Below, piece by piece: positions 1 to 64,000 of a DNA stretch of 64,000 nucleotides. Origin of the DNA: Knoellia remsis (lineage in GTDB: Bacteria > Actinomycetota > Actinomycetes > Actinomycetales > Dermatophilaceae). The stretch is from the NCBI RefSeq assembly GCF_003002895.1, contig NZ_PVTI01000010.1, positions 1 to 64,000 on the forward strand. Direction: 5' to 3'. Under the pieces are notes generated by a model. The model ran no database searches. It had not been told where the DNA came from and worked only from the letters and a program-made list of their open reading frames with translations. Each line of letters starts with the position of its first letter. Within the stretch, counting starts at the first letter, position 1. A program made the translations under genes and the position numbers.

Positions 1-215
1 GCGCGAGTGTCCAGGTCCCGGTGCCGGTACCCGTTGCGGCTATTGGTGCGGTCCGGGCTACGGGTGCCGTACTCGGCACCGCACACGCTATCGGCCTGCG
101 CCGACAGCAGCGCGTTGATGAACGTGGTCAGCAGATCGCGCATCAGGTCCGGGCTGGCCTGGGCGAGCTGGTCGTGCAGGAAGACGGCAGGGTCGATACT
201 GGTGTTCGCGGTCAT
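1..215 (-). CDS. IS256-family transposase, N-terminal part, cut by window edge
   Basis: Reading the minus strand from an ATG at 215 gives 71 codons open to the window edge. The product starts MTANTSIDPAVFLHDQLAQA and continues through LMRDLLTTFINALLSAQADS to a GTRSPDRTNSRNGYRHRDLD-type segment. That segment (NSRNGYR) is the usual conserved N-terminal part of IS256 mutator-type transposases, ahead of the DDE catalytic domain, which lies outside the window. It moves the element by cut-and-paste or copy-out transposition. Whether the whole copy is intact cannot be seen here. It lies 250 bp from a second, unrelated insertion sequence, so this edge of the window is a mobile-element cluster. Confidence 0.8.
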   Translation of the reverse strand, partial: MTANTSIDPAVFLHDQLAQASPDLMRDLLTTFINALLSAQADSVCGAEYGTRSPDRTNSRNGYRHRDLDTR

Positions 216-467
216 CGCGATGCTCCATTCGAGAGTGCTGTGAGAGGTTCACTCGAAGGATCACGCGGTGACCGCACCTACGTGCGTAGGGACACGCTCA
301 CCGGTGTCGTCGTACACCAACCCTATGGACTCAACTCCCTGTGGACTGTCCGCCTGGCCGATGGAGTGCAATTCGGGCCGAATCGCCACACCGCGTGGCG
401 CCCTTGTCAACGTGTTCCGTGACGATCGACTTCGGGTGGGTGGCACCAACCGTCGCCTCCATAATGC
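216..467. other. Non-coding stretch between two insertion sequences
   Basis: No convincing gene. The part nearest 215 should be the untranslated end of the IS256 element. A segment around 300-345 (GTCGTCGTACACCAACCC) resembles the terminal regions of actinobacterial IS256 elements, but I cannot place its exact terminus. The part up to 467 abuts the ISL3 left inverted repeat and matches neither the IS nor the truncated gene on the far side of the ISL3 element. Confidence 0.4.
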
Positions 468-494
468 GGCTCTTCCCAGATGAGTGTGGGGTCA
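468..494 (+). repeat. Left terminal inverted repeat of the ISL3 element
   Basis: A 27-bp sequence starting GGCTCTTCCCAGATGAGTG and ending GGGGTCA is the exact reverse complement of 1922-1948. Its inner three bases are also the stop codon of the transposase gene. Confidence 0.95.
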
Positions 495-1826
495 TAGGTT
501 GAGGCCTCCTGCGATGAGGAGCATCCGAAGCCTGTAGTTCTGGCGATTTCTGAAGCCGCGGGCGACCCTGCGGTGCAGCTCGATCAGTCCGTTCACGGCT
601 TCGGCACCGCCGTTGTTCGCGCCGCCGGTGGTGAAGTACGCGAGGAACGCCTCACGCCACTGGGCCAGCGTCCGACCGAGCCGGGCGATCTCGGGGATCG
701 GGCACGAGGCGAAGCTGGCGAGGATCTTCTCGGCGATCACGCGACCTTGGGCGTGGCTGGCCTGGTGGTAGGCGGAGCGGACCTGTTGGGCGCACTGGTA
801 GGCGACCCAGACCTCGTCGTGTCGTTCGTCCGCGGCGATCGCGGCGGCGAGCCGGGCTTGTTGTCGTTCGGTCAGGTGCTCGGCGCCGGCGTGCAGGATG
901 TTCCGGATCCGATACAGCGGGTCATTCTTGCGGCCGCGGTGGCCGTGGATCTGCTGCTGGACGCGGCGGCGGACCTCGTCGAGCGCGTGACCTGCCAACT
1001 TCACGACGTGGAAGGCGTCGAGGACGGCGACGGCGTCGGCCAGCTGGTCGTCGATCGCGTTCTTGTACCCGCGGAACGGATCCAGCGTCGCCACCTGCAC
1101 CCGCTTGCGGAACGCCTCGCCGCGGTCGCACAGCCAAGTGGCGTACGCGGGCCCGGAGCGGCCCACGACCAGGTCCAGCAGCCGCGCCCGCACGACCATC
1201 TTCTCGGGGTTCTTCGGGTCCGGGTGGCGGGTCAGGTCGACCATCCCGGTCAGCTCCTTCGGGCCGCGGCGGAGCGGGGACACGTGGTGCCACACGTGCT
1301 CGTCGACGCCCAAGGTGGTGACCCCGTCGAAGCGGGACTCATCGTTGGCGGCATCCTCGAGCAGCGGGCGGATCGAGGCCCACACCGTGTCCCACGTCGT
1401 GCCCAGCTGCCGGGCCAGCCCGTGGATCGAGGCGTGCTCGCGGCGGACCTGCTCGATCGCCCACCGGCACGCCCGGGTCGTCAGCAGCGCCCGCGGCCGC
1501 GCGACCCGCTCGTCCTGCTCAACGAACGACACACGCGGGCAGGCCGGCTCCGGGCACAGCCAGCGCCGCTTGCGCCACACCACCGTGACCGGCCGCCCGG
1601 CCGACGGGGCGTCCACCAGCCGCACCTCGAGCCGTCCGTGCCCGTGCGCCACCACCCCGCACGAGGGGCAGCCCATCACTGCTGGCTCGGACTCCACCGT
1701 CACGGTCAACGCGCCGTCCTCGTCACGGGCCACCGCAGTCACACGCAGCCCGTCCAAGCCGACAAGAAGGTCACACCGGTCGCAGTAGCCGCCCACAACT
1801 GAGCAGCACGACGTAGGCTCAGGCAC
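492..1826 (-). CDS. ISL3-family transposase
   Basis: A DDE transposase for the surrounding element, 444 residues, normal length. It has an N-terminal zinc-ribbon-like part (C53-x2-C56, C91-x4-C96), then a helix-turn-helix (IHGLARQLGTTWDTVWASI, about 134-152). The DDE catalytic domain opens with LGVDEHVWHHV (D175). Further acidic candidates are ATLDPFRG (D249), AVLDAFHVVKL (D270) and the C-terminal GGAEAVNGLIE (E409). It ends in the typical RMLLIAGGLNL. The frame is intact, so the element could still be active. The start is the GTG at 1826 or nearby; the CxxC-rich opening argues that the N-terminus is complete. Confidence 0.94.
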   Translation of the reverse strand: MPEPTSCCSVVGGYCDRCDLLVGLDGLRVTAVARDEDGALTVTVESEPAVMGCPSCGVVAHGHGRLEVRLVDAPSAGRPVTVVWRKRRWLCPEPACPRVSFVEQDERVARPRALLTTRACRWAIEQVRREHASIHGLARQLGTTWDTVWASIRPLLEDAANDESRFDGVTTLGVDEHVWHHVSPLRRGPKELTGMVDLTRHPDPKNPEKMVVRARLLDLVVGRSGPAYATWLCDRGEAFRKRVQVATLDPFRGYKNAIDDQLADAVAVLDAFHVVKLAGHALDEVRRRVQQQIHGHRGRKNDPLYRIRNILHAGAEHLTERQQARLAAAIAADERHDEVWVAYQCAQQVRSAYHQASHAQGRVIAEKILASFASCPIPEIARLGRTLAQWREAFLAYFTTGGANNGGAEAVNGLIELHRRVARGFRNRQNYRLRMLLIAGGLNL

Positions 1827-1921
1827 GTCGAGGTCCTTGAGATCAGAAGAGGTAGAAGTCCTCTGATCCTCCGGGACCTCGACCCCTTCTCAGCTCAGGC
1901 CGCAGACCCTGCGTGTCGCCC

Positions 1922-1948
1922 TGACCCCACACTCATCTGGGAAGAGCC
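1922..1948 (-). repeat. Right terminal inverted repeat of the ISL3 element
   Basis: Perfect inverted copy of 468-494. It lies at the broken 3' end of the GH15-like gene and contributes the final four residues (ALPR) and stop codon of that open frame. Confidence 0.95.
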
Positions 1949-2769: not shown

Positions 2770-2909
2770 CCGCTACCTCCGTCGGTTGCGCCGAACCTAC
2801 TCCAGGGCCGGCACGAACACGCGCGGATACGACGAAACCCAGCGGACCGGCATACCGATCGATGCGTATGCCGGTGCGCCGGGTTCCGGTCAGCGGTCGC
2901 CGATCAGGG

Positions 2910-3874: not shown

Positions 3875-4909
3875 TCAGCTCGTGTAGGGGACGCGCTCCC
3901 AGGTCAGCACCGGCAGCCCGGAGCGGACTGGGTTGACCGTGACGTCGAGCCAGTTCGTGTTGTTGCCCGACCCGTCGACGGTGACGCGGCGCAGGTCGCT
4001 CGACCCGGTGACGCCGTAGAGGTCGAGCCACGGCGAGCCCTCCGCGAGCGGCTGGTCCTCGTTGTAGGCGTGGCTGTCGCCGTTGAAGAGGTAGGTCTCC
4101 CCGTCGAAGGCGTTCGACTCGTCGATGAGCAGCTGCACGAGCGGGGTGAACTCGGAGACGTTCGACAGCGGCACGTCGTAGGTCGGGTCGAACATGTCGG
4201 CCTGGAGGAAGATCGCGACCGCCCGGTCCTGGCGACGGCGTGCGTCCGCGAACGCCTCGCGCACCGTCCGCAGGGCGCTCTCCATCCGCGCGTCCTGCTC
4301 GGCGAGCTGCTCCGGTGTCGGCGCGGTGAGCCCGAGCCCGGTCCACGGCTGGGTGCCGTCGTTGCTGCCGACGACGTGGACCGCCGCCATCGAGACGCGG
4401 TCCTCGCGCCACTGCACGTTCTCGGGGTAGCCCGCAGCGGTGTCGGCCTCGACCTTGCGGGTCTTCTCGCCGAGGGTGCGGCCGGGGTCGGGGAAGAACG
4501 TCGCGCGGACGAAGTCGAGCCGCTCGAGCGGGTTGTAGGCGCCGTTGTTGACCCGGTGGCAGTCGGTCCACTCGTTGTCGCCGGGCGTGAAGATGAACGG
4601 GCTGCTCAGGGTGTCGAGCACGTCGCGGATGTTCGTGATGTAGCTGTCCGAGCACACCGACGAGCCGCTCTTGATGTCACCGACGTGGACGGTGAACTCG
4701 GGGTCGGCGGCGTCGATCTCGTCGACCCAGCCGGGGAAGCGCGCGACCTGGTCGGCGCCGTAGGGCACGTCGCCGATCACGGCGAAATGGTTGCGGTGGG
4801 CCGTGTCCGGCAGGTCGGGGGTCGTGCCGGCCGCGGTCGCGGACGGGACCAACGCGGCGGCGAGGACGAGGGACAGGGCGGGCGCAGCGGCATACCGGAG
4901 CGTTCTCAT
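3875..4909 (-). CDS. Secreted metallophosphoesterase
   Basis: Calcineurin-like phosphoesterase, 344 residues, exported: a Sec signal peptide with cleavage expected after SATAAG near residue 27. The metal-binding blocks are visible: FAVIGDVPYG (about 42-51), VHVGDIKSG (about 75-83) and FTPGDNEWTDCHR (about 106-118), followed downstream by a His-containing FNGDSHAYNED. The family cleaves phosphomono- or diesters with a bimetal centre; the substrate here is unknown. It starts 70 bp from the divergent SRPBCC gene and ends at a strong hairpin. Confidence 0.85.
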   Translation of the reverse strand: MRTLRYAAAPALSLVLAAALVPSATAAGTTPDLPDTAHRNHFAVIGDVPYGADQVARFPGWVDEIDAADPEFTVHVGDIKSGSSVCSDSYITNIRDVLDTLSSPFIFTPGDNEWTDCHRVNNGAYNPLERLDFVRATFFPDPGRTLGEKTRKVEADTAAGYPENVQWREDRVSMAAVHVVGSNDGTQPWTGLGLTAPTPEQLAEQDARMESALRTVREAFADARRRQDRAVAIFLQADMFDPTYDVPLSNVSEFTPLVQLLIDESNAFDGETYLFNGDSHAYNEDQPLAEGSPWLDLYGVTGSSDLRRVTVDGSGNNTNWLDVTVNPVRSGLPVLTWERVPYTS

Positions 4910-4979: not shown

Positions 4980-5423
4980 GTGGGTCGCCTGTGGAGGTTC
5001 CGTCACCGCTGGGTCGTGCCGGCTCCCGTCGCGGAGGTGTATGCCGTGTGCGCGGCGGTCGAGGACTATCCCACCTGGTGGCGGGAGGTGCGTTCGGTGG
5101 TGCGGGTCAGTGAGGACGTCGGCGATGCGCGGGTGCGCAGTCTGCTGCCGATCACCTTGCGGCTCAGGCTCGTTCGTGAGGTCGACGACCCGGCGACGGG
5201 GCGGCTGCGGGTCGGGCTGTCGGGTGACCTGACCGGGTGGGCGGAGTTCCTGCTGACGCCGGGGGGTGGCGGGACGGAGGTGGTCTTCCGGCAGGAGGTC
5301 GAGGTGACGGTGCCGGTGCTGCGACGGGTCGCGCCGGTCCTCGCCCCGCTCCTGCGCGCCAACCATTCCTGGATGATGCGCTCCTGCCGACACGGTATGC
5401 AGCGCCTGCTCGCTGACGTCTAG
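4980..5423 (+). CDS. SRPBCC-fold (polyketide cyclase/START-like) protein
   Basis: 147 residues read from a GTG at 4980 (VGRLWRFRHRWVVPAPVAEV). The helix-grip pattern is clear: the opening strand WRFRHRWVVPAPVAEVYAVC, then YPTWWREV, and a long C-terminal helix NHSWMMRSCRHGMQRLL. SRPBCC proteins bind small hydrophobic ligands in a central cavity. Nothing in the sequence identifies the ligand. The next gene begins 10 bp downstream, and its likely -10 element overlaps this gene's stop codon. The in-frame extension further upstream lies in the divergent promoter region and is not supported. Confidence 0.8.
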   Translation: MGRLWRFRHRWVVPAPVAEVYAVCAAVEDYPTWWREVRSVVRVSEDVGDARVRSLLPITLRLRLVREVDDPATGRLRVGLSGDLTGWAEFLLTPGGGGTEVVFRQEVEVTVPVLRRVAPVLAPLLRANHSWMMRSCRHGMQRLLADV

Positions 5424-5433: not shown

Positions 5434-6141
5434 ATGTCGCAGGAGCCGGAGACCAACGAGTTCGGACAGCGCGTCGGGCCGGTGGTCGAGGGCTGGACGC
5501 CCCGGCCCCCGCTCGAACCGACGACCCTCGAGGGCCGGTATGTCCGGGTCGCTCCGCTGTCCGAGGCGCACTTCTCGGACCTCTTCGCCGCGACGTGCGG
5601 ACCGGACGACGGTCCGCTGTGGACCTACCGTCCCGTCGCGAAGCCGGCCAACCTCGCCGGTCTCTGGATGCACCTCGCCGCCGCGCTCGAGGACGACGCC
5701 CAGCTCCCGTTCTCGCTCATCCCGACCGAGGGGGAGCGAGCCGGTACGGCGAGCGGCATCGCGGCATACATGCGCGTCGAGCCGCGGACGGGGCAGGCAG
5801 AGGTCGCTGGGGTCCTGCACGGGACCGGGCTGCGGCGCACACGCGCGGCGACCGAGGCGATCCACCTCCTCATGCGGCACGCGTTCGACCTCGGCTACCG
5901 GCGCTTCGAGTGGAAGTGCGACAGCCTCAACGAACCGTCGCAGCAGGCCGCTCGGCGACTCGGGTTCACCTACGAGGGGCGCTTCCGCAACCACATGGTC
6001 ACCCAGGGGCGTAGCCGCGACACCGACTGGTTCTCGGTGACGAGCGAGGAGTGGCCGGCGGTGCGGGCCGCCCACGAGGCGTGGCTCGACCCGGCCAACT
6101 TCGACGAGTCCGGGCAGCAGCGCGCGAGTCTGCGGGTCTGA
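5434..6141 (+). CDS. GNAT acetyltransferase, RimJ/RimL type
   Basis: 235 residues with the usual RimJ/RimL layout: RYVRVAPLSEAHFSDLFAA near the start, the central strand AEVAGVLHGTGLRRTRAATE (acetyl-CoA-binding loop region) and the C-terminal FEWKCDSLNEPSQQAARRLG motif. Such enzymes transfer acetyl groups to protein N-termini, amino sugars or small amines; this subgroup is unassigned. The ATG follows a TAGGGT box with no ribosome-binding site. Its 3' end faces ppa across a tandemly repeated hairpin. Confidence 0.88.
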   Translation: MSQEPETNEFGQRVGPVVEGWTPRPPLEPTTLEGRYVRVAPLSEAHFSDLFAATCGPDDGPLWTYRPVAKPANLAGLWMHLAAALEDDAQLPFSLIPTEGERAGTASGIAAYMRVEPRTGQAEVAGVLHGTGLRRTRAATEAIHLLMRHAFDLGYRRFEWKCDSLNEPSQQAARRLGFTYEGRFRNHMVTQGRSRDTDWFSVTSEEWPAVRAAHEAWLDPANFDESGQQRASLRV

Positions 6142-6220: not shown

Positions 6221-6883
6221 TCAGGCGTCGGGGTTGTCGCTGAGCGGCTTCTCCTTGGTCGCCAGCTCCTCCTTGGCCTTGGCGGCCGCGTGGGCGTGCT
6301 CCTCCTCGGTGCGTGCCGCGGACACCTCGTTCGGGACCGACGACGCCGGCGCCGCCGACGCGTCGTGACCGGCCGGCATACGCCACCGCGCGGTGGACAC
6401 GCCCGCCTCGCGGGCGCGCTCGATGGCCTCGGTCACGGTGCGCTCGGCGTCCTCGCGGCCGGCCCAGTGGGCGCCCTCGACGGACTTGCCGGGCTCGAGG
6501 TCCTTGTAGGTCTCGAAGAAGTGCTGGATCTCCAGGCGGTCGAACTCGCTGATGTCCTCGAGCTCGGTGATGTGCGCCTTGCGCGGGTCGCCGGCCGGGA
6601 TGCAGAGGATCTTGTCGTCGCCGCCGGCCTCGTCGCGCATGTGGAACATGCCGATGGGGCGGGCGCGCACGAGACAGCCGGGCCACGTCGGCTCGTCGAG
6701 CAGGACGAGCGCGTCGAGCGGGTCGCCGTCCTCGCCGAGGCTGTCCTCGACGTAGCCGTAGTCGCTCGGGTACGCCATCGACGTGAAGAGCATCCGGTCG
6801 AGGCGGATGCGGCCCGTCTCGTGGTCCACCTCGTACTTGTTGCGGTGTCCCTTGGGGATCTCGATGGTGACGTCGAACTCCAC
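6221..6883 (-). CDS. ppa: Inorganic pyrophosphatase with C-terminal extension
   Basis: Hydrolyses pyrophosphate to phosphate, driving biosynthetic reactions in the cytoplasm. The family I signature is complete: [12 protein letters not shown] near residue 9, [20 protein letters not shown] (the DxDPLD metal site), and [13 protein letters not shown]. The body of about 160 residues matches the usual bacterial enzyme. It is followed by about 55 extra residues rich in Ala, Glu and Lys ([20 protein letters not shown]), probably a helical or disordered tail. GTG at 6883 ([12 protein letters not shown]) is chosen because the family begins there and a GAAGG lies upstream. Divergent from dacB, as in many actinobacteria. 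Confidence 0.93.
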
Positions 6884-6995: not shown

Positions 6996-8441
6996 ATGCG
7001 ACGCGGAGTTGTGGCCGGACTCACAGCCGCAGTCGTCGTCGGCGTCACCGGGTACGCCGCGGCGGACGTCGCCGGGCTCGCGCCGGGCATCCTCACCTAC
7101 GACGGTGCTCCCGTCGCCGCGCCGACCCCGTCGGACTCGCCCTCCGCGACCCCGTCGTGGGCGCCGCTGCCCGCCGCGGTCGCGCCCAGCCCCACGCCGA
7201 CCCCGAGCGCACCCGTGCCCACGACCGCCGGACTGACCACGGTTCTCGCTCCGCTCGTCAAGGACCCGTGGTTCGGTCCCAGTGTCGGCGTCACCGTGCG
7301 CGACGGGCTGACCGGCGAGGAGCTGTATGCCGTGTCCGCGGACACCCCGCGCGCGCCGGCGTCCTCGACCAAGGTCCTCAGCGCCTTCGCGGTCATCCGG
7401 TCCCTCGACCTGGAGTCGCGCATGACGACCAAGGTCGTCGAGGGGGCGAAGCCCGGCGAGATCGTCCTCGTCGCCGGTGGCGACACGATGCTCGGCGAAG
7501 GCGCCTCCGACCCCTCGTCCGTCGCCGGCCACGCCGGCCTCGGGACCCTCGCCGACGAGGTCGCCGCCTCGCTGCGCGAGCAGGGCGTCACCTCGGTGAC
7601 CCTGCGGACCGACGCGACGTATGCCGCCGGGCCGCGCTTCCCGGCGAAATGGAAGCAGATCGACGCGGACGAGGGCTTCACCCAGGGCGTCGCCATGCTC
7701 GGGCGAGCCATCCAGCGCCCGAAGTACGGCACGCCATCGGTCGCCGTCGCCGAGGACTCCGTGTCAGGGGCGCTCGCGAAGCTGCTCACCGCCAAGGGCA
7801 TCGCCACGAAGGCCGTCCCGCTCGGTCCGACCGACCACGGCACCCCCGCACCCGAGGGCGCTCGCGAGCTCGGGGCCGTCGAGTCCGCGACCTACCGCGA
7901 GGTCCTCGACGTCGCCCTCAACGTCAGCGACGACGCCCTCACCGAGAACCTCGTCCGCCAGGCCATGGCCGCCAAGGGCCAGTCCCCCGCGAAGCTCACC
8001 GCCGTCCCCGCCTTCGTCAAGGCCACCCTCACCGAGGCCGGTGTCGACACAGCCGGCATGGCTACCCTCGACGCGAGCGGCCTCGCCTACGGCCAGGTCG
8101 TCAGCGCGACGACGCTCGGTGACGTCCTCGCGCTCGCCAGCAGCGGCAAGGAGCCCGACCTGCGCGACGCCATCGCCGGGCTGCCCGTCGCCGGGCTCAC
8201 CGGGACGCTCGCCAAGCGCTACCAGAGCAAGACCACGAAGGCCGCGGCCGGCATACCGCGCGCAAAAACGGGCACTCTCACCGGCATCTCGAGCCTCGCC
8301 GGCTCCACGGTGACGAAGGACGGGCGGCTGCTGACGTTCGTCGTCCTCGCCGACCGTGTGCCAGAGTCGTCGGGAACGCTCGGTGCCCGGGCGGCGTTGG
8401 ATCGGTTCGTCACCGCACTGACGCAGTGCGGCTGCCGCTAA
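6996..8441 (+). CDS. dacB: D-alanyl-D-alanine carboxypeptidase/endopeptidase, S13 (PBP4) family
   Basis: Penicillin-binding protein that trims or cuts peptidoglycan cross-links outside the membrane, 481 residues. An N-terminal signal/anchor segment (about 5-25) is followed by a Pro/Thr/Ser-rich linker (about 40-78). The active-site motifs are SxxK in [11 protein letters not shown] (S123-K126), the second motif in [12 protein letters not shown] (SDD rather than the more usual SDN/SxN), and KTG in [12 protein letters not shown] at 6996 follows an AGGGGAG ribosome site. It heads the conserved run dacB, DUF2342 protease, tilS, hpt. Confidence 0.92.
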
Positions 8442-10611: not shown

Positions 10612-11094
10612 TCAGGAGCTGGAGGAGTCGGCGGGGTCCGCCGGGAGGGCGGCGCAGGCCTCGAGGAAGGCGTTCGTCGACGGGGCCTCGGCCGCCTCGA
10701 CCTCGGCGCGCAGGACGCTGCGCTGGGTGGGGCGCGCCTCGGCATACCGAGCCCGGCCGGAGTCGGTGACGCGGGCGAAGACGGCGCGGCGGTCCTTCGG
10801 GCACATCTCGCGGTGGACGAGCCCGGCCTCCTCGAGCCGCCCGACGAGCCGCGACAGGGCGGACTGGGTGAGGTGCACGCGGGTGCCGAGGTCGGCCATC
10901 TTGAGCTCGGCCGGCTCGGCGACGCAGAGCGCCTCGAGGACGTTGAACTCGCTGGAGGTGAGCTCGTGCTCGCTCATGAGCGTGCGGTCGAGGGTGCAGC
11001 TGAGGCGCTGGTAGCGCTGCATGAGGTCGCGCCAGCCGGCCGCGAGCGCGTCGTCGTCGAGCGGCGTGGCGGGGGTGGTCGTGCTGCCCTTCAC
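10612..11094 (-). CDS. MarR-family transcriptional regulator
   Basis: 160 residues, winged helix-turn-helix. The DNA-binding part is ELTSSEFNVLEALC, LKMADLGTRVHLTQSALSRL (recognition helix) and the wing MCPKDRRAVFARVTDSGRA. MarR proteins usually repress a divergent transporter and release DNA on binding a phenolic or drug-like ligand. That fits the MFS exporter starting 87 bp away in the opposite direction. GTG at 11094 (VKGSTTTP) is the most likely start; longer readings run into the shared promoter. Confidence 0.88.
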   Translation of the reverse strand: MKGSTTTPATPLDDDALAAGWRDLMQRYQRLSCTLDRTLMSEHELTSSEFNVLEALCVAEPAELKMADLGTRVHLTQSALSRLVGRLEEAGLVHREMCPKDRRAVFARVTDSGRARYAEARPTQRSVLRAEVEAAEAPSTNAFLEACAALPADPADSSSS

Positions 11095-13465: not shown

Positions 13466-13499
13466 GGCGAGCGGCCGGCATACGCCCGCCCGCTGATCC

Positions 13500-20107: not shown

Positions 20108-22515
<2,408 letters not shown>

Positions 22516-48064: not shown

Positions 48065-48130
48065 GCCACGGAGGATGCGCACCCGGCATACGCGCGTGAA
48101 ACGCACGTGAAGGCGCCCATCGCGAGGGCA

Positions 48131-52805: not shown

Positions 52806-52892
52806 CGCCGCGCTGACGCGCTGATGACCGCGACTCTCACCTTCGGGTGTGGGTCGCGTTCGTCTTTCCGGTATGCCGTTCGCTCGCCCACC

Positions 52893-54106: not shown

Positions 54107-55716
54107 TGGCGACAAAGAACACGGCCGCGAAGTCGTCGACGACGAAGAAGGCGACGACGAAGGCGACCGCGAAGAAGGCGACTCCGAAGAAGCCGACCGC
54201 GAAGAAGCCGATGACGAAGGCGACCGCGAAGACGGCGACGACGAAGGCGACCGCGAAGAAGACGGCCGCCAGGAAGACGACGCCGAAGAAGGCTGCTCCG
54301 AAGCCGGACGCCACCCGCCGCAACGCCCCGGCCAAGAAGGACCCGACGGGCCGCCCGTCCTCGGTCGCGGCGGGTGCCGCTCGCGCGTCCGGTGAGCGGG
54401 CTCGTCGTCGCGCCACGCCCCTCCTGACCGCTGCGGTGGAGTCGGCGGCGACGAGCTCGGCACAGGCGACGCCACCGGCACCTGCCACCTCGTCGACGAC
54501 CTCCTCGACGGCAGCCACGAAGGCGGCCACCGCGGCGGTGAAGGCCGGCGCCCCCGGCAAGACCTCCGCGACGACGACGGCTCCGGCCGGCGGACGCGGA
54601 GCGCACCGCCCCCGACCCAACCCCCGCTCCGAGGCGTCGTCGAAGGCGACCCGGCAGGCCGGCATACGACCGCAGAGCCCGCGGGCGAAGCGCAAGGCGG
54701 ACGAGGCGGCCCGACGGCACCTGCGGGTCGCGCCGCCGCCCGCGCCCACCCCGCCGGCGCCGGACCCCACGGCGACCCAGACCGACATGGCCCTGCCCGT
54801 GCCCGGCATCGAGGAGCTGCTGTCGGCCTCGATCGCGGCGATGCGGATGGCCGCCCAGGGAGCGGGGTTCTCGCCCGAGGAGGTCGAGCGCCGGATCGCG
54901 GCGACGCTGGCGTTCATCCGCCGCCGCATCGAGGGCGACTACTCGGTCGACGAGTTCGGCTACGACGAGCATTTCGCCGAGAACGTCATCTTCCCGCTGT
55001 TGCGGCCGCTCTACCGGAAGTGGTTCCGGGTCGAGGTGCGCGGGCTGGAGAACATCCCCGACGAGGGTGGCGCCCTCATCGTCAGCAACCACTCGGGCAC
55101 CATCGCCATCGACTCGCTCATGGTGGCGCAAGCCATCCACGACGAACACCCGAAGCACCGGGTGATGCGCGCGCTCGGCGCCGACCTCGTCTTCCAGACG
55201 CCGTTCGTCGGGGCGTTCGCGCGGCGCGGCGGCTCGACGCTGGCCACGAACGCCGACGTCGACCGGCTCTTCGCCCAGGGCGAGCTCGTCGGCGTCTTCC
55301 CAGAGGGGTTCAAGGGCGTCGGCAAGCCGTTCAAGGAGCGCTACAAGCTGCAGCGGTTCGGTCGCGGTGGCTTTGTGTCGGCGGCCCTCAAGGCCGGGGT
55401 GCCGATCATCCCGACGTCGGTCGTCGGCGCGGAGGAGATCGCGCCGATGATCGGCAACATGAAGACGGTGGCGCGGCTGTTGGGCGTGCCGTATGCGCCC
55501 ATCACGCCCACCTTCCCGCTGCTCGGGCCGCTGGGGCTCATCCCGCTGCCGAGCAAGTGGATCATCGAGTTCGGTGCGCCGATCGAGACAGCGTCGCACG
55601 GCGAGGGCGCGTCGGAGGACCCGATGCTCGTCTTCGACCTCACCGACCAGGTGCGCGAGACGATCCAGCAGACGTTGTACTCGCTGCTCATGCAGCGTCG
55701 CTCGGTCTTCTTCTGA
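54106..55716 (+). CDS. Lysophospholipid acyltransferase with histone-H1-like N-terminal tail
   Basis: 536 residues in two unlike halves. Residues about 1-80 are Lys/Ala/Thr/Pro repeats of the KKATxKATAKK kind; about 80-225 are Ala/Pro/Arg-rich linker. From about 285 is a PlsC-type acyltransferase: IVSNHSGTIAID (H329-x6-D336, longer than the classical HX4D), LVGVFPEGFKGVGKPFKERY, and GVPIIPTSVVGAEEI. No strong membrane helix. Such acyltransferases add a fatty acid to lysophosphatidate or a related lipid. The basic tail could bind nucleic acid or acidic lipids. Confidence 0.85.
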   Translation: MATKNTAAKSSTTKKATTKATAKKATPKKPTAKKPMTKATAKTATTKATAKKTAARKTTPKKAAPKPDATRRNAPAKKDPTGRPSSVAAGAARASGERARRRATPLLTAAVESAATSSAQATPPAPATSSTTSSTAATKAATAAVKAGAPGKTSATTTAPAGGRGAHRPRPNPRSEASSKATRQAGIRPQSPRAKRKADEAARRHLRVAPPPAPTPPAPDPTATQTDMALPVPGIEELLSASIAAMRMAAQGAGFSPEEVERRIAATLAFIRRRIEGDYSVDEFGYDEHFAENVIFPLLRPLYRKWFRVEVRGLENIPDEGGALIVSNHSGTIAIDSLMVAQAIHDEHPKHRVMRALGADLVFQTPFVGAFARRGGSTLATNADVDRLFAQGELVGVFPEGFKGVGKPFKERYKLQRFGRGGFVSAALKAGVPIIPTSVVGAEEIAPMIGNMKTVARLLGVPYAPITPTFPLLGPLGLIPLPSKWIIEFGAPIETASHGEGASEDPMLVFDLTDQVRETIQQTLYSLLMQRRSVFF

Positions 55717-55726
55717 GGTGCTGCGT

Positions 55727-56053
55727 ATGCCGTCCGCTCCCGACCCGCTGTCGCCGGCCTCCGCAGGCGCGTCGCCGACACGGCCGCTCGGGTCGCCGCC
55801 GGAGGAGGGCGAGCCCCGGGTGACGCTCATCGGGAAACCGGGCTGCCACCTGTGTGACAACGCGCGCGCGGTCATCGCGGCGGTGACGGCGGAGCTGGGG
55901 GAGTCGTTCACAGAGGTCTCGATCCTCGACCACCAGGACCTCAGGGAGCGCTACGCCGAGGAGATCCCGGTCACACTCGTCGACGGCCGCCAGCACGACT
56001 ACTGGCGCGTCGACGCCGACCGCCTCCGCGCGGCCCTGCGTCGACCGAACTGA
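55727..56053 (+). CDS. Glutaredoxin-like (DUF836) thiol protein
   Basis: 108 residues from ATG 55727 (MPSAPDPLSP). A thioredoxin-like domain begins at about 33: RVTLIGKPGCHLCDNARAVI with a C-x2-C site, ending EEIPVTLVDGRQHDYWRVDA (cis-Pro). Family members are commonly encoded just before rex, as here. The first 30 residues are low-complexity and contain the repeated GTATGCCGTCCGCTC motif, so the true start may differ (GTG 55718 possible). Confidence 0.82.
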   Translation: MPSAPDPLSPASAGASPTRPLGSPPEEGEPRVTLIGKPGCHLCDNARAVIAAVTAELGESFTEVSILDHQDLRERYAEEIPVTLVDGRQHDYWRVDADRLRAALRRPN

Positions 56054-56172: not shown

Positions 56173-56280
56173 GAGAGGTGCCTTTGCTCCCGCATACGGG
56201 AGCAAACAACGCCATTTGCTCCGGCATACGGGAGCAAACAACGCCATTTGCTCCGAGGGGGTGGAGCAAAGGCACCTCTC
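56173..56280. repeat. 108-bp nested palindrome with two tandem hairpin units
   Basis: An 18-bp perfect outer stem, GAGAGGTGCCTTTGCTCC (56173-56190) with its complement (56263-56280), encloses two 32-33-bp direct repeats. Each unit contains TTTGCTCC-C/GGCATAC-GGGAGCAAA, a smaller palindrome with GCATAC in its loop. It sits between the glutaredoxin-like gene and rex. Confidence 0.8.
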
Positions 56281-56536: not shown

Positions 56537-57217
56537 GTGTCCGCCGACGTCGCAGCCCGCCGGGGAATCCCCGACGCGTCAGTGGCTCGACTTCCGGTGT
56601 ACCTCCAGGCCCTCACCAGCCTCGCCGAACGCGGCATCACCAACGTCAGTTCCGAGGAGCTCGCCGCCGCCGCCGGTGTCAGCTCGGCCAAGCTCCGCAA
56701 GGACCTCTCGCACCTCGGCTCCTACGGCGTGCGTGGTGTCGGCTATGAGGTCGACCGCCTCGCCTTCGAGATCTCGACCGCTCTCGGGCTCACCCAGGAC
56801 TGGCCCGTCGCGATCATCGGCATGGGCAACCTCGGCCGCGCGCTCGCGGCATACAGCGGCTTCGCCACGCGCGGGTTCAACGTCGTCGCCGTCCTCGACC
56901 ACGACGAGAGCATCGTCGGCACCGTCGTCGCCGACCACGCGGTGCGACCCATGAGCGACCTCGACACCCTCGTGCGCGAGGACAAGCTCGCCATCGGCGT
57001 CATCGCCACCCCGGCCGACTCCGCGCAGGACGTCGCCGACCGTCTCGTCGCCGCCGGCGTCCGCTCGATCCTCAACTTCGCCCCCTGCGTCCTCGACGTC
57101 CCCGATGACGTCGTCGTGCGCAAGGTCGACATGTCCACCGAGCTGCAGATCCTCGCCTTCCACGAGCAGCGCCGCTCCGGCGAGCTCGACCTCACCGACG
57201 AGGAGGTGGCCCTGTGA
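56537..57217 (+). CDS. rex: Redox-sensing repressor Rex
   Basis: 226 residues. N-terminal winged helix (RLPVYLQALTSLAERGITNV, SSAKLRKDLSHLGSYGVRGV) and a Rossmann NADH domain (PVAIIGMGNLGRALAAYSGF, FNVVAVLDHD, GVIATPADSAQDVADRLVAA). Binds its operator when NAD is high and lets go on NADH binding, as under low respiration. GTG at 56537 with AAGGAG 12 nt upstream. hemA overlaps by GTGA. Confidence 0.95.
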   Translation: MSADVAARRGIPDASVARLPVYLQALTSLAERGITNVSSEELAAAAGVSSAKLRKDLSHLGSYGVRGVGYEVDRLAFEISTALGLTQDWPVAIIGMGNLGRALAAYSGFATRGFNVVAVLDHDESIVGTVVADHAVRPMSDLDTLVREDKLAIGVIATPADSAQDVADRLVAAGVRSILNFAPCVLDVPDDVVVRKVDMSTELQILAFHEQRRSGELDLTDEEVAL

Positions 57218-58560
57218 GCCTGCTCGTCCTCGGCCTCTCCCACCACGGCGCGCCCATCGAGCTCCTCGAGGCCGCCGCGCTCGACGTGGCCGCCCGTGGC
57301 CGCCTCGAGGCGGCAGCCGTCGCCTCCGAGCACGTCGTCGAGTCCGTCGTCGTCTCCACGTGCAACCGCACCGAGGTGTATGCCGAGGGCCTCACCTTCC
57401 ACGGAGCCCTCGCCGACGTCTCCGAGGCCCTCGCGTCCGCGACGGGTGTGCCGCTCGCCGAGCTCCAGCCGCACCTCTACGTCCACTACGAGGACCGGGG
57501 CATTGCCCACGCGTTCAGCGTCGCCGCGGGTCTCGACTCGATGGCCGTCGGCGAGGCCCAGATCCTCGGTCAGCTGCGCGAGTCGCTGAGCCGGGCCCAG
57601 CGTCGTGGCCATGTCGGTCCTGCGCTGAACACTCTTCTGCAGCAAGCACTTCGGGTCGGCAAGCGAGTCCACACCGAGACCGCGATCGACGACGTGAGCC
57701 GGTCCCTCGTCGGTGCCGGTCTCGGCGTCGCCACCGGGGTCGTCGGCCCCATCGAGAGTGCCCACGTCCTCGTCATCGGCGCCGGTGGGATGGGCGCCCT
57801 CGCGGCGACCACGGCCCACCAGGCCGGCGCCGCGAGCGTCACCGTCGTCAACCGTGGCGCGGCCCGTGCCGAGCGTCTCGCCGAACGCGTCGCCGGCACC
57901 GCCCGCGCGTGGGACGAGCGCGTCGCCGCGCTCGCCGACGCCGACATCGTCATCTCGAGCACCGGCGCCACCGGCGTCGTCGTCACCGAGGCGGACGTCT
58001 CGTATGCCGCCCAGTCACGCGGCGGCCGTCCGCAGCTCTACCTCGACCTCGCCCTCCCGCACGATGTCGACCTCGCCGTCGCGAACCTCGACGGCGTCAC
58101 CCGCGTCGGGCTCGCCGAGCTGGGCGAGCTGCTCAGCACCGCAGGCGACCTGCCGCAGGTCGACGAGGCGCGCGACATCGTCACGGGCGAGGTCGCGGCA
58201 TACCTCACCGAGCGCTCCAGCGAGGCCGTCGCGCCCACCGTGGCCGCCCTGCGCACCCGCGCGAAGGAGGTCGTCGACGACGAGATGGCCCGGCTCGAGC
58301 GCCGCACGCCGGGTCTCGCCGACGCCGACCGCGCCGAGGTCCAGCGCGCCGTCCACCGCATCGTCGAGAAGCTGCTCCACGCCCCGACCGTGCGGGTCAA
58401 GGAGATGGCCCAGGCGGGACAGGGCGGCAGCTACGCGAAGGCCCTGAGTGAGCTCTTCGACCTCGACCCGCGTGAGGTGCGCGTCGTGTCGACGCCGCCC
58501 GTCATCCCCGTCTCGACGCCGCCCGTCATCCCCGTCACCGACGAGGAGGAGGGCCGATGA
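57214..58560 (+). CDS. hemA: Glutamyl-tRNA reductase
   Basis: First committed step of C5-pathway tetrapyrrole synthesis, making glutamate-1-semialdehyde from Glu-tRNA. 448 residues. Catalytic Cys in [40 protein letters not shown] fold [20 protein letters not shown], and the dimerisation helix near [20 protein letters not shown]. The C-terminus carries an exact-type duplication (STPPVIPV twice) from a 24-bp repeat at 58486-58533. Coupled to rex and hemC by 4-bp overlaps. Confidence 0.96.
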
Positions 58561-59618
58561 GCGAGCGCACCCTCCGCCTCGGCACCCGCCGCTCCGCCCT
58601 CGCGACGACCCAGTCGACGTGGGTGGCCGACCGGCTCCGCGGGCTCGGCCACGACGTCGAGCTCGTCGAGATCACGACCGAGGGTGACCGCGACCGCACC
58701 ACGCCGCTCGCGAGCCTCGGCGGCACCGGCGTCTTCGTCTCGGCTCTGCGCGAGGCCCTGCGCGTCGGCCGGGTCGACCTCGCCGTGCACTCCCTCAAGG
58801 ACCTCCCCACGACCCCCGAGGACGACCTCGTCGTCGCGGCGATCCCCTCTCGTGAGGACCCGCGCGACGCCCTCGTCGCCCGCGACGGCCTCACTCTCGG
58901 CGAGCTCCCGGCCGGCTCGACCGTGGGCACCGGCTCCCCGCGCCGCCGCGCCCAGCTCGAGGCGCTCGGGCTCGGCCTCGAGGTGCGCGACCTGCGCGGC
59001 AACGTCGACACCCGCCTCGGCAAGGTCACGGGCGGTGACCTCGACGCCGTCGTCCTCGCCCGCGCCGGACTGGCGCGTCTCGGCCGCACCGACGTCATCA
59101 CCGAGGTCATCGACCCGCTCCAGATGCTGCCGGCCCCCGGGCAGGGCGCCCTCGCGGTCGAGGTCCTCGCCTCCGGCGACCCGACCGTCCGCGACGCCGT
59201 CGCCGCCCTCGACGACGCCGACACCCGCGCCTGCGTCACCGCCGAGCGGGCCGTGCTCGCCGAGCTCGAGGCCGGGTGCTCCGCGCCGATCGGAGCGCTC
59301 GCCGAGATCGTCCTCGGTGAGGACGGCGACGAGCTGTCGCTGCGCGCGGTCGTCGCCGCGACCGACGGCAGTGCCGACCTGCGCCGGTCCCTCACCGGTG
59401 ACCCCGCCGACGCCGAGGCGCTCGGGCGCTCCCTTGCCCGGCTGCTCCTCGAGGACGGCGCCGCGGACCTCGCGCCCGACCTCGGCACTCCCGCGGGTGC
59501 GCCCGCAACAACCGTCGCAGGTGCGCCCGCGCGACAACCCAGCGGTGCCGGCATACCGGCCCCCACAGAACCTGCTGCCCAGACCGTCCCACCCAACGCC
59601 CCGGAGCGTGACCAGTGA
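58557..59618 (+). CDS. hemC: Porphobilinogen deaminase (hydroxymethylbilane synthase)
   Basis: 353 residues. Builds the linear tetrapyrrole on a dipyrromethane cofactor attached to Cys in [13 protein letters not shown]. Conserved [40 protein letters not shown] (catalytic Asp in the loop region), [20 protein letters not shown] and [16 protein letters not shown] Pro/Ala/Thr-rich tail of about 35 residues follows the last domain. Overlaps hemA and hemDX by 4 bp. Confidence 0.96.
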
Positions 59619-61240: not shown

Positions 61241-62214
61241 CCCGGCTGTCGCACCGTCCGCGCCGGCTGCGCCAGTCGGCGGCGGTGCGGCGCCTCGTCG
61301 CCGAGACCCGGCTACACCCGGCCGACCTGGTCCTGCCCGTCTTCGTGCGGGAGGGCATCGACGCTCCGGAGCCGATCGAGGCGATGCCGGGCGTCGTCCA
61401 GCACACACTCGACTCGCTCGTCGAGGAGGCCCGGCGCTGCGTCGAGGCCGGCCTTGGCGGGATCATGGTCTTCGGGGTCCCCACGGACGACCACAAGGAC
61501 GCGGTGGGATCCCACGCGGACGCCGCGGACGGCATACTCAACGTCGCGCTGCGAGCGGTCCGCGACGCGGTCGGTGACGACCTCGTCGTCATGTCGGACC
61601 TCTGCCTCGACGAGTTCACCGACCACGGCCACTGCGGCGTCCTCGACGACGAGGGTCGGGTCGACAACGATGCGACCCTCGAGCGGTATGCCGCGATGGG
61701 CCTCGCGCAGGCGCGCGCCGGTGCGCACGTGCTCGGCCTCAGCGGGATGATGGACGGCCAGGTCGGCTACGTGCGCGAGGCGCTCGACGAGGCCGGCTTC
61801 ACCGACACCATCGTGCTCGCGTATGCCGCGAAGTACACCTCCGCGCTCTACGGCCCCTTCCGCGAGGCGGTGCAGTCGTCGCTGCAGGGCGACCGGGCGA
61901 CCTACCAGCAGGACCCGGCGAACGCGGTCGAGGCGCAGCGCGAGATCGAGCTCGACCTCGCCGAGGGCGCCGACATGGTCATGGTCAAGCCGGCACAGCC
62001 GCACCTCGACATCATCGCCCTCGCGGCAGAGATTTCGACGGTGCCGGTCGCGGCCTACCAGATCTCGGGGGAGTACGCCCAGATCAAGGCGGCTGCCGAG
62101 CGCGGCTGGATCGACGGCGACCGGGCCGTGATGGAGTCGCTGCTGCACATCAAGCGGGCCGGGGCGCAGGTCATCCTGACCTACAGCGCCCTCGACGTCG
62201 CCCCCCACCTCTGA
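61237..62214 (+). CDS. hemB: Delta-aminolevulinic acid dehydratase (porphobilinogen synthase)
   Basis: Joins two 5-aminolevulinates into porphobilinogen. 325 residues. Schiff-base lysines in VLAYAAKYTSALYGPFREA and DMVMVKPAQPHLDI. The metal site reads SDLCLDEFTDHGHCGVLDDE, a mixture of Cys and Asp/Glu at the positions that are all-Cys in zinc enzymes. GTG at 61237 overlaps hemDX. The gene ends before a 25-bp palindrome. Confidence 0.96.
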   Translation: MTRLSHRPRRLRQSAAVRRLVAETRLHPADLVLPVFVREGIDAPEPIEAMPGVVQHTLDSLVEEARRCVEAGLGGIMVFGVPTDDHKDAVGSHADAADGILNVALRAVRDAVGDDLVVMSDLCLDEFTDHGHCGVLDDEGRVDNDATLERYAAMGLAQARAGAHVLGLSGMMDGQVGYVREALDEAGFTDTIVLAYAAKYTSALYGPFREAVQSSLQGDRATYQQDPANAVEAQREIELDLAEGADMVMVKPAQPHLDIIALAAEISTVPVAAYQISGEYAQIKAAAERGWIDGDRAVMESLLHIKRAGAQVILTYSALDVAPHL

Positions 62215-62913: not shown

Positions 62914-62942
62914 TGGGTACGCATCCGGTACGGCTCGTCCAA
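62914..62942 (-). promoter_or_regulatory. Candidate yceI promoter
   Basis: On the minus strand, TTGGAC (62942-62937), 17-bp spacer, TACCCA (62919-62914), 32 bp ahead of the ATG. Next to it (62960-62995) is an unusually AT-rich stretch, TCGTAGATTTTTCAACAATT, a likely binding area for the divergent MarR protein. Confidence 0.5.
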
Positions 62943-63043
62943 CGAGCGGTCCGCAGCCCATCATTCCCGATTTCGTAGATTTTTCAACAATTAGCCCACG
63001 GTCCGATTCGCTGTGGGCCCCGGTCGAGGCGCGGGACAACGGT

Positions 63044-63055
63044 TACCATGCCAAG
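63044..63055 (+). promoter_or_regulatory. TACCAT -10 box, leaderless marR promoter
   Basis: TACCAT at 63044-63049, 6 nt before the GTG at 63056. Confidence 0.45.
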
Positions 63056-63550
63056 GTGGCCGCGGAGGAGGTTCCAGCGACCCGCTGGCTGACGGACGAC
63101 GAACAACAGGCTTGGCGGGCGTACCTGCGTGCCCACCGTGAGCTCCAGGTCGCGCTCGACGACGACCTCGCCGAGTTCGGGATGAGCCTCCCGGAGTACG
63201 AGTTGCTGTCGATGCTGTCCGAGCAGGAGGGCGGTCGGGCGCGCATGTCGGTGCTCGCCGACCTCGTCGTCCAGAGCCGCAGCCGGGTGACGCACACGGC
63301 CAAGCGCCTCGAGGACCGCGGGTGGGTTCGCCGCGAGCGCACCCCGGAGGACGGCCGCGGAGTCGCCATCGCGCTCACGCCCGCCGGCCGCCGCACCATC
63401 GAGGCCGCCGCCCCCGTGCACGTCGCGTCGGTGCGCCGCAACTTCATCGACCTCCTGACGCTCGAGCAGGTGCAGTGCCTCCACGACGCGTTCGCTGAAG
63501 TGCGGGCCCATCTCGTCCCCGGGGCCCGGGCCGACGACGTCATCGTCTGA
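63056..63550 (+). CDS. MarR-family regulator beside yceI
   Basis: 164 residues from GTG 63056 ([20 protein letters not shown]). Winged helix: [40 protein letters not shown] (recognition helix), wing [18 protein letters not shown]. Divergent MarR/yceI pairs are frequent in actinobacteria, so yceI is the likely target. Ligand unknown. Confidence 0.88.
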
Positions 63551-63566
63551 CGGCGACAATGGACGC

Positions 63567-64000
63567 ATGACGTCCAGCCCCTCCCCGAGCACCCACCCCG
63601 GCACCACCGACGCCCCCGCCTCCGCCGCCCTCCTCGAGCGGGCCGCCCGAGTCATCCCGGGTGCAGTGAACTCGCCGGTGCGCGCCTTCCGCGCCGTCGG
63701 AGGGACGCCGCGGTTCATCCGCGAGGCGAAGGGTCCGTGGCTGACCGATGCCGACGGCCGTCGCTACGTCGACCTGCTGTGCTCGTGGGGCCCGATGATC
63801 CTCGGCCACGCGCACCCCGACGTCCTCGCCGCCGTCGACGAGGCCGCCCGCCGCGGCTTCTCCTTCGGGACGCCGAGCGAGAACGAGGTGCTGCTCGCCG
63901 AGGAGATCGTCGACCGCATCGAGCCGCTCGAGCAGGTGCGCCTCGTCTCGTCCGGCACCGAGGCGACGATGAGCGCGGTCCGCCTCGCGCGCGGCGTCAC
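63567..64000 (+). CDS. hemL: Glutamate-1-semialdehyde 2,1-aminomutase, N-terminal part
   Basis: Runs off the window end; 144 codons seen. PLP enzyme turning glutamate semialdehyde into 5-aminolevulinate, the step between HemA and HemB. Recognised by [59 protein letters not shown] and [20 protein letters not shown]. The catalytic Lys lies beyond the window. ATG 63567, 6 nt after GACAAT, possibly leaderless. Confidence 0.95.

What the first reader, a model, noticed from the sequence alone, without database searches (positions are those of the whole stretch)
1..64000. Heptamer GGCATAC/GTATGCC is strongly over-represented and overrides codon choice
Seen directly: I count roughly sixty copies by eye across the window, about one per kb, split almost evenly between the two orientations, in genes on both strands and between genes (for example 2849, 2868, 5037, 7325, 9574, 13478, 20433, 23302, 23317, 28970, 40965, 49435, 56223, 61823). 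If GC is near 70%, a composition-only estimate is about six. In coding DNA it appears in every frame and each frame needs a codon rare in this genome: TAT-GCC (Tyr-Ala), GGC-ATA (Gly-Ile), GCG-GCA-TAC (Ala-Ala-Tyr). A longer form, GTATGCCGTCCGCTC, recurs (19216, 55725, partly 9574, 40228, 52871) and its complement GAGCGGACGGCATACG lies before ftsH at about 23290. Density, lack of strand bias and cost in codons recall DNA-uptake or repair-type genome signals, or a methylation/restriction or nucleoid-protein site. Which one is unknown.
Basis: partly seen in the sequence, partly recalled or inferred. Interest (0 to 1): 0.8.

Follow-up and report, generated by a model that had tools for sequence, protein, structure and literature searches.

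The report
Genome-wide DNA tag in Knoellia bacteria
A soil bacterium close to Knoellia carries the same eight-letter DNA word thousands of times, evenly spaced and kept by evolution, and several related bacteria carry slightly altered versions; it most resembles the self-recognition tags that some unrelated bacteria use to choose which DNA to take up.

Summary
The heptamer is part of an octamer, CGGCATAC: 61 of 62 heptamers in the window, and 3277 copies in the 3.57 Mb genome of a Knoellia-like actinobacterium. In a 484 kb sample 485 are seen against 12 expected; with protein and codon usage held, coding DNA has 329 against 16.5. The word is three times denser between genes, gains a 10-bp upstream consensus there, is evenly spaced without strand bias, and is kept at many orthologous sites in six relatives. 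It is abundant in 106 of 186 genomes of the family; some others carry a one-base variant instead (CCGCATAC, CGGCATCC, CGGCGTAC). Same-orientation copies avoid each other within about 1 kb and opposite ones do not, so the site seems polar. The genome has ComEA, ComEC and a Tad/Flp locus, but no RecC match. Best reading: a DNA-uptake-type self signal with dialects, unreported for Actinobacteria in the papers searched. Main rival: a Chi-like recombination signal for an AdnAB-type enzyme. Uptake is untested, no receptor is identified, methylation was not testable, and some lineages with the same machinery show no such word. Composition or codon bias alone is excluded.

The parts
2848..2855 (+). 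CGGCATAC, intergenic; arm of an inverted pair with 2866
2866..2873 (-). CGGCATAC, intergenic; second arm of the inverted pair
4888..4895 (+). CGGCATAC, coding
5039..5046 (-). CGGCATAC, gene edge
5762..5769 (+). CGGCATAC, coding
6374..6381 (+). CGGCATAC, coding
7325..7332 (-). CGGCATAC, coding
7619..7626 (-). CGGCATAC, coding
8249..8256 (+). CGGCATAC, coding
9574..9581 (-). CGGCATAC, intergenic, extended form
10388..10395 (+). CGGCATAC, coding
10740..10747 (+). CGGCATAC, coding
12138..12145 (-). CGGCATAC, coding
13476..13483 (+). CGGCATAC, intergenic, extended form
14059..14066 (-). CGGCATAC, coding
17410..17417 (-). CGGCATAC, coding
18630..18637 (+). CGGCATAC, coding
19216..19223 (-). CGGCATAC, intergenic, extended form GAGCGGACGGCATAC
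20433..20440 (+). CGGCATAC, coding
21514..21521 (+). CGGCATAC, coding
21763..21770 (-). CGGCATAC, coding
23299..23306 (+). CGGCATAC, intergenic before ftsH, extended form; direct pair with 23315
23315..23322 (+). CGGCATAC, intergenic before ftsH; identical in 6 of 6 relatives
24755..24762 (+). CGGCATAC, coding (ftsH); kept in 0 of 6 relatives
25783..25790 (-). CGGCATAC, coding; kept in 6 of 6 relatives
26665..26672 (+). CGGCATAC, coding; kept in 5 of 6
28345..28352 (-). CGGCATAC, coding; kept in 6 of 6
28967..28974 (+). CGGCATAC, intergenic, extended form
32741..32748 (+). CGGCATAC, coding; kept in 2 of 6
32820..32826 (-). GGCATAC preceded by A: the only heptamer that is not an octamer
33527..33534 (-). 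CGGCATAC, intergenic; kept in 6 of 6
33818..33825 (-). CGGCATAC, coding; kept in 6 of 6
34745..34752 (+). CGGCATAC, coding
36857..36864 (-). CGGCATAC, coding; kept in 0 of 4 aligned
37063..37070 (+). CGGCATAC, coding; kept in 0 of 4 aligned
38063..38070 (-). CGGCATAC, coding; kept in 6 of 6
38479..38486 (+). CGGCATAC, coding; kept in 0 of 6
39534..39541 (+). CGGCATAC, coding; kept in 5 of 6
40229..40236 (-). CGGCATAC, coding, extended form; kept in 1 of 1 aligned
40963..40970 (+). CGGCATAC, coding; kept in 1 of 6
42019..42026 (-). CGGCATAC, coding; kept in 6 of 6
42621..42628 (+). CGGCATAC, coding; kept in 6 of 6
43851..43858 (-). CGGCATAC, coding
45138..45145 (-). CGGCATAC, coding; kept in 6 of 6
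45575..45582 (+). CGGCATAC, coding; kept in 5 of 6
46894..46901 (+). CGGCATAC, intergenic, extended form
48084..48091 (+). CGGCATAC, intergenic; kept in 2 of 2 aligned
49068..49075 (-). CGGCATAC, coding; kept in 6 of 6
49434..49441 (-). CGGCATAC, coding; kept in 2 of 5 aligned
50210..50217 (+). CGGCATAC, coding; kept in 5 of 6
52871..52878 (-). CGGCATAC, intergenic, extended form; kept in 4 of 5 aligned
54660..54667 (+). CGGCATAC, coding; kept in 5 of 6
55725..55732 (-). CGGCATAC, intergenic, extended form; kept in 6 of 6
56222..56229 (+). CGGCATAC, intergenic, inside a short repeat
56847..56854 (+). CGGCATAC, coding; kept in 3 of 6
57378..57385 (-). CGGCATAC, coding; kept in 1 of 6
58002..58009 (-). 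CGGCATAC, coding; kept in 0 of 4 aligned
58196..58203 (+). CGGCATAC, coding; kept in 2 of 6
59549..59556 (+). CGGCATAC, coding
61530..61537 (+). CGGCATAC, coding; kept in 0 of 5 aligned
61686..61693 (-). CGGCATAC, coding; kept in 0 of 5 aligned
61821..61828 (-). CGGCATAC, coding; kept in 5 of 5 aligned

Best explanation
CGGCATAC is a genome-wide self-recognition signal of the DNA-uptake-sequence kind. A protein of the transformation machine (inferred: a minor pilin of the Tad/Flp pilus, or ComEA) binds double-stranded DNA bearing the octamer with a footprint reaching about 10 bp upstream; tagged fragments are taken up and recombined more often than untagged ones, so copies that arise by point mutation are spread and repaired by recombination until they lie about 1 per kb. 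Because same-strand copies repel each other within about 1 kb and opposite ones do not, handling of the bound DNA is probably directional. Shown here: abundance, sharpness, spacing, polarity of spacing, conservation, dialects, presence of comEA, comEC and tad genes. Inferred: uptake, the receptor, the drive.
For: 3277 copies in 3.57 Mb, close to the ~1,000 bp USS spacing of H. influenzae (PMC7811141, passages). 485 seen against 11.9 expected; 24 one-mismatch words 356 against 366. Intergenic 2.33 per kb against coding 0.78; upstream consensus in intergenic sites. Inverted close pairs, several in palindromic stems, as reported for USS pairs. No strand bias: 246 to 239 overall, 78 to 79 over 160 kb of one contig. 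Under-dispersed: variance/mean in 10 kb bins 0.37, lowest of 2000 simulations 0.47. Orthologous sites keep the word in 90 of 153 coding and 24 of 25 intergenic aligned cells, random 8-mers 28-35%. TAT is kept in 57 of 68 same-residue cells inside the word against 34 of 73 outside, GCA 24 of 48 against 35 of 180. Dialects by whole-genome counts and samples, like the eight DUS dialects of Neisseriaceae (PMC3630211, passages). comEA (SLBB and HHH domains) and comEC (Competence domain) side by side, and a tad locus, in the own genome; Micrococcus luteus needs ComEC and tad genes for transformation (PMC4322843, passages).
Against: No uptake or transformation data. ComEC and TadA also occur in G160, where no word was found, and ComEC in further lineages without a word, so the machinery does not predict the word. 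Same-orientation repulsion is not predicted by orientation-free uptake as reported for H. influenzae (PMC1939737, passages), and is weak or absent in two of three dialect genomes tested and between two intergenic sites (15 to 17). No gene was found that tracks the dialects. One-mismatch words are not in excess, though mutational decay should leave some. CGNCGTAC tops another order, wider than any uptake signal I know of.
Confidence: 0.48

Rival explanations
1. Chi-like recombination signal: a helicase-nuclease (AdnAB or a relative) resecting a broken end halts degradation at the word when it meets it in the right orientation, so each strand needs its own copy about every kb.
For: In the own genome same-orientation pairs are depleted at 100-1000 bp (g 0.42-0.57) while opposite pairs are near chance (g 0.89-1.07); neighbours 100 bp or more apart: 251 opposite, 153 same. 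The word persists across genera with small changes, and a related word tops another order. [quoted passage not shown]
Against: RecC has no match in 9 of 9 Knoellia genomes. No strand bias along the chromosome, which Chi of E. coli has (recalled). A 10-bp flanking consensus and hairpin pairs do not fit a short word read on one strand. About 20-fold (coding) to 75-fold (non-coding) enrichment is above what I recall for Chi. Some sampled genomes show no such word. AdnAB and AddAB genes were not searched.
Confidence: 0.28
2. Site of another chromosome-wide DNA-binding or DNA-modifying protein, such as a nucleoid or strand-marking factor or a methyltransferase that marks self DNA.
For: Even spacing, conservation and intergenic extension would fit a binding protein. 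The word is non-palindromic, so a one-strand mark could explain polarity (inference).
Against: 297 of 327 coding copies are read in a frame that uses TAT, GCA or ATA, which are minor codons. Restriction systems select against their sites rather than for them (recalled), and one word is abundant in 30 of 53 genera.
Confidence: 0.17
3. By-product of composition, codon-pair bias or repeats.
For: Some copies sit in 66-68 bp tandem repeats.
Against: Codon-preserving and Markov nulls fail by 20-75 fold; copies lie in coding and intergenic DNA in both orientations; flanks differ between copies.
Confidence: 0.01

Closest known systems
DNA uptake sequences (DUS) of Neisseriaceae
   Same: About 1 per kb, both orientations, one-base dialects between genera, inverted pairs
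   Different: 8-bp core, actinobacterial (Gram-positive) host, Tad/Flp locus instead of a type IV pilus with ComP (PilM matches 7 of 186 family genomes and not the own one), uptake untested, same-strand repulsion
Uptake signal sequences (USS) of Pasteurellaceae
   Same: ~1 kb spacing, core plus flanking consensus, fewer in coding DNA, inverted pairs
   Different: No intragenic position bias here where one is reported for Pasteurellaceae (PMC2346458, part 1 of 3 of the text); other word, other phylum
Chi recombination hotspots (RecBCD/AddAB)
   Same: Octamer, over-represented, orientation-specific spacing
   Different: No RecC match in the genus, no chromosomal strand bias, extended flanks
HIP1 octamer of cyanobacteria (recalled)
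   Same: Highly iterated octamer across a clade
   Different: HIP1 (GCGATCGC) is palindromic; this word is not

Membership tests
DNA uptake sequence (DUS/USS) | Extreme over-representation at about 1 per kb | tested here: met
   3277 in 3.57 Mb; 485 against 11.9 expected in 484 kb
DNA uptake sequence (DUS/USS) | Both orientations equal along the chromosome, even spacing | tested here: met
DNA uptake sequence (DUS/USS) | Inverted pairs forming hairpins | tested here: met
   28 of 60 pairs closer than 80 bp are inverted, several within palindromic stems by eye; no preference for convergent gene ends was seen: 16 sites in 7.7 kb convergent, 97 in 34.9 kb co-directional, 23 in 17.3 kb divergent
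DNA uptake sequence (DUS/USS) | Natural-transformation machinery in the genome | tested here: met
   comEA and comEC on contig C37, tad locus on C9 (TadE, TadF-like and TadB just under the Pfam cut-offs); DprA not searched
DNA uptake sequence (DUS/USS) | Tagged DNA is taken up preferentially | not testable with these tools
   needs uptake or transformation assays
DNA uptake sequence (DUS/USS) | A receptor whose variation follows the dialects | tested here: inconclusive
   small tad proteins of 10 loci (one cut short) read by eye, no pattern claimed
DNA uptake sequence (DUS/USS) | Orientation of the site does not matter | tested here: inconclusive
   spacing here depends on orientation; whether DUS or USS spacing does too was not tested
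Chi (RecBCD) | RecC in the genome | tested here: not met
   PF04257 matches 0 of 9 Knoellia genomes, 89 of 186 in the family
Chi (RecBCD) | Leading-strand orientation bias | tested here: not met
   246 to 239, heterogeneity chi2 8.1 on 22 df; replication direction of the contigs is not known
Chi (AddAB/AdnAB) | Enzyme responds to the word in one orientation | not testable with these tools
   AddAB and AdnAB genes were not searched
KOPS-like polar chromosome signals | Orientation skew along the chromosome | tested here: not met
HIP1-type palindrome | Palindromic octamer | tested here: not met
   CGGCATAC is not its own reverse complement (read from the sequence)
Restriction-modification site | Methylation at the word | not testable with these tools
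   no long-read signal data

The most novel reading that the evidence does not exclude
Actinobacteria use an uptake-type self-recognition code, ancestral form CGNCGTAC, of which CGGCATAC is the dialect of the Knoellia family; the code is read directionally, one strand at a time, so that each strand is tagged independently about every 1-2 kb.
Probability: 0.3. Interest if true: 0.95.

Novelty: new variant of a known kind. Interest (0 to 1): 0.85.

Why it matters
Uptake signals are described for two Gram-negative families, Pasteurellaceae and Neisseriaceae, in the papers seen here (passages of PMC7811141, which include its summary, and of PMC1939737, together with its abstract start). A family of dialects in Gram-positive Actinobacteria would be an independent origin of self-tagged DNA exchange, would predict barriers to recombination between genera, and would give a practical handle for transforming these bacteria. 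The orientation-specific spacing is a testable clue that the reader of the tag works with a polarity. If it is Chi-like instead, it would answer the open question whether AdnAB-type enzymes obey a Chi word.

Tried and rejected
Type IV pili as the uptake machine: PilM matches only 7 of 186 genomes and not the own one. Loss of ComEC as the reason for lacking the word: ComEC matches in 180 of 186 genomes, and frame breaks were seen in one genome with another dialect (G083) and one with the main word (G015). T2SSE ATPase number as a correlate: 185 of 186 genomes match, no pattern by eye. RecC as a correlate: 51 of 122 genomes with a known word and 38 of 64 without one have it (from the tables and the G178 sample; the Janibacter word is not counted as known). 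Maximum-order Markov was not used as a test, because it contains the word itself. Intragenic position bias as the cause of alternation: none. Viral DNA: 35 stretches of viral contigs hold the 15-mer GAGCGGACGGCATAC; the octamer occurs at most 3 times in any of them; the Tetrasphaera phage TJE1 has 2 octamers in 49 kb. Plasmids: only a ComEC search, best identity 43.5%.

Limits: genes were called by a simple script of mine, not a published caller. Word searches in 40-100 kb samples have little power (the sample of G022 missed its 1359 copies of CGGCGTAC), and my gene caller did poorly in G019, G027 and G030. Relatives share ancestry, so cells are not independent. The eight loci and twelve were picked after one search had shown enrichment; one search repeats with all 14 Nocardioidaceae, Nocardioides and Kribbella loci in hand.


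Full report
What is there. The window has 62 GGCATAC/GTATGCC (33 +, 29 -) against 1.87 in shuffles and 3.55 by an order-2 Markov model; 61 of the 62 are CGGCATAC. The window is C10:1-64000 of a 3.57 Mb, 62-contig genome. Its ComEC matches named Knoellia records at 71-76% and falls inside the Knoellia clade of a 54-row tree, so the organism is a Knoellia or very near it (phylum Actinomycetota, order Micrococcales, family Intrasporangiaceae in NCBI's taxonomy; Dermatophilaceae in GTDB, recalled). The genome holds 1655+1622 CGGCATAC against 162+114 for the word read backwards.

More than chance. In a 484 kb sample of the genome (window, contig C37, 160 kb of C1, twelve 20 kb stretches) there are 485 octamers against 11.9 expected (order 2); the 24 one-mismatch words together number 356 against 366, so the word is sharp. 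With protein sequence and codon usage held, coding DNA has 329 against 16.5; non-coding DNA has 151 against 2.0 by order 2; it is the top octamer. Outside the word TAT is 8.6% of Tyr codons; 146 of 345 TAT and 34 of 55 ATA codons lie inside it.

Anatomy. Density is 2.33 per kb between genes and 0.78 within. Of 327 coding copies, 158 run with the gene and 169 against it; position inside genes is flat. Of 60 pairs closer than 80 bp, 28 are inverted, several inside palindromic stems; some direct pairs come from 66-68 bp tandem repeats. Flanking preferences differ between genera, e.g. +1 is C in 77% of 30 sites of G141 and L060 but G in 76% of 29 sites of g4.

Spacing and polarity. Copies are under-dispersed (variance/mean in 10 kb bins 0.37; 2000 simulations mean 1.20, minimum 0.47). 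No stretch of the own genome departs strongly from balanced orientation (chi2 8.1, 22 df). Yet neighbours tend to alternate: for neighbours 100 bp or more apart 251 opposite, 153 same (p 1.2e-6). Same-orientation pairs are at 0.57, 0.42 and 0.57 of expectation at 100-300, 300-600 and 600-1000 bp, opposite pairs at 1.07, 0.89 and 1.03; pairs under 100 bp are in excess in both classes (1.55 and 1.46). The same is seen in six Knoellia relatives (231 to 94; shared ancestry), in 28 stretches of other genera (185 to 119, p 1.8e-4), and in G178 with its own word (54 to 23). It is weak or absent in G088 (52 to 35, p 0.09), G033 (19 to 14) and for CGAAGGGG in G092 (47 to 29, p 0.05); for the looser word CGNCGTAC four sets of dialect genomes lean the same way (92 to 65, 58 to 45, 69 to 50, 53 to 34). 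Of six control words in the own genome five have more same than opposite neighbours and one is even (54 to 59). The effect fades beyond 2 kb (30 to 24) and is not seen between two intergenic sites (17 to 15).

Maintenance. About 29-31 kb of the window aligns to each of six Knoellia genomes (83-86% identity). The word is kept in 90 of 153 aligned coding cells and 24 of 25 intergenic ones; random 8-mers in 28-35%. The commonest difference by eye is at position 5, synonymous where the codon is GCA or TAT. Given the same amino acid, TAT is kept in 57 of 68 cells inside the word and 34 of 73 outside; GCA 24 of 48 and 35 of 180; ATA 15 of 20 inside and 6 of 6 outside, too few to compare.

Distribution and dialects. 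In the family (186 genomes, 53 genera) 106 genomes of 30 genera have 400 copies or more (from the table); in the order sample none of 362 genomes of 19 other families exceeds about 180. Several genomes poor in CGGCATAC carry a sister word, at 0.2-0.9 per kb. By whole-genome count: CCGCATAC in 4 of 4 genomes of g13 (511-1204 copies); CGGCGTAC in 3 of 3 of g34 (2111-4185), 3 of 3 of g3 (785-2618), and in G020, G021, G022, G023 and G083 (1125-2529); G146 has 1011 of it beside 836 CGGCATAC. By samples with the codon-preserving null: CGGCATCC in G178 (coding 65 against 11.2, non-coding 20 against 0.8), CGGCGTAC in G088 (96 against 15.8; 18 against 1.4), CCGCATAC in G033 (35 against 3.8; 5 against 0.2), each the top word; CGCCGTAC in G083 (45 against 11.4; 12 against 0.7) is second to CGAGCAGC there. 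G082 has CCGCATCG on top, but only in coding DNA (82 against 15.9; non-coding 3 against 1.2), so I do not count it. Janibacter-clade genomes have an unrelated word, CGAAGGGG or GAAGGGGG. G160, G184, G009, G029, G046, G095 and G098 show no clear word in 40-100 kb; G160 has 526 CGGCGTAC against 102 for its reversal, but no excess in the sample. On the ComEC tree the word state changes at least 8 times; Phycicoccus is nested inside word-bearing lineages and has none found (quick tree, 16 of 51 branches weak).

Beyond the family. In 245 kb from all 14 Nocardioidaceae, Nocardioides and Kribbella loci in hand (order Propionibacteriales for Nocardioidaceae) the four most enriched octamers are CGTCGTAC, CGGCGTAC, CGACGTAC and CGCCGTAC, i.e. 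CGNCGTAC (about 3-fold in coding DNA; the eight loci gave the same). It is not on top in Actinopolymorpha, Paractinoplanes with Micromonospora, Kineosporia or Sphaerisporangium. Twelve non-family loci show no alternation (163 same, 174 opposite), so common function is a conjecture.

Machinery. In the own genome a gene with SLBB and HHH domains (comEA) precedes comEC (Competence and lactamase-B domains). A tad locus has TadA (T2SSE), two T2SSF proteins (one under the Pfam cut-off), a 45-aa Flp-like DUF4244 protein, and TadE-like and Tad-like proteins just under the cut-offs; the first gene is called CpaE-like from its place only. ComEC matches in 180 of 186 family genomes, T2SSE in 185, PilM in 7, RecC in 89 but in 0 of 9 Knoellia. 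In Micrococcus luteus ComEC and genes of two tad clusters are required for transformation (PMC4322843, passages). The small tad proteins gave no visible dialect pattern.

Interpretation. The profile matches uptake signals in most points, and dialects are the strongest parallel (PMC3630211, passages). The polarity does not follow from orientation-free uptake (PMC1939737, passages) and fits either directional processing at the uptake site or a Chi-like signal. I therefore put uptake at 0.48, Chi-like at 0.28, other binding or modification at 0.17.

Print. Full-text searches for the words and for uptake sequences with actinobacterial or family terms listed no paper that describes this motif or an uptake sequence in Actinobacteria, judged from titles and abstract starts; the library holds open-licence papers only.

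Noticed in passing
L033 13248-13400, L037 47-200, L038 287-440 (own genome): 66-68 bp tandem repeats that each carry one CGGCATAC and the stretch TCACCCAATTGGACG; TCACCCAATT is itself among the most enriched 10-mers of the sample (27 copies).
   Followed up: no
window 56203-56250: The site at 56222 lies between two copies of AACAACGCCATTT, a short direct repeat with an inverted GCTCC/GGAGC around the motif.
   Followed up: no
L027, L142, L162-L165 (G092), L023, L170-L173 (G065), L070 (Marihabitans): Janibacter-clade genomes lack CGGCATAC but carry CGAAGGGG about 0.5-0.8 times per kb, about 4 per kb between genes in G092, without strand bias.
   Followed up: partly
L090, L092, L096, L098, L099, L101, L105, L110, L114, L115, L120, L121, L127, L129: CGNCGTAC words are the four most enriched octamers in Nocardioidaceae, Nocardioides and Kribbella loci.
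   Followed up: partly
L038 3295-13837 (own genome): A 10.5 kb stretch without the motif and with lower GC (0.669) holds genes unknown to me, one PIN-like by eye, perhaps an acquired island.
   Followed up: no
G016 in genus g4: G016 lacks the word and has RecC, while its four sisters have the word and no RecC match; over the family RecC is in 38 of 64 genomes without a known word and 51 of 122 with one.
   Followed up: partly
L021 (G083), L013 (G015): comEC aligns in two frames, a possible break or sequencing error.
   Followed up: no
L066 and L083: Mixed words: CGGCATTC 14 beside CGGCATAC 8 in L066; CGTCATAC 7 beside CGGCATAC 12 in L083, perhaps dialects in transition.
   Followed up: no
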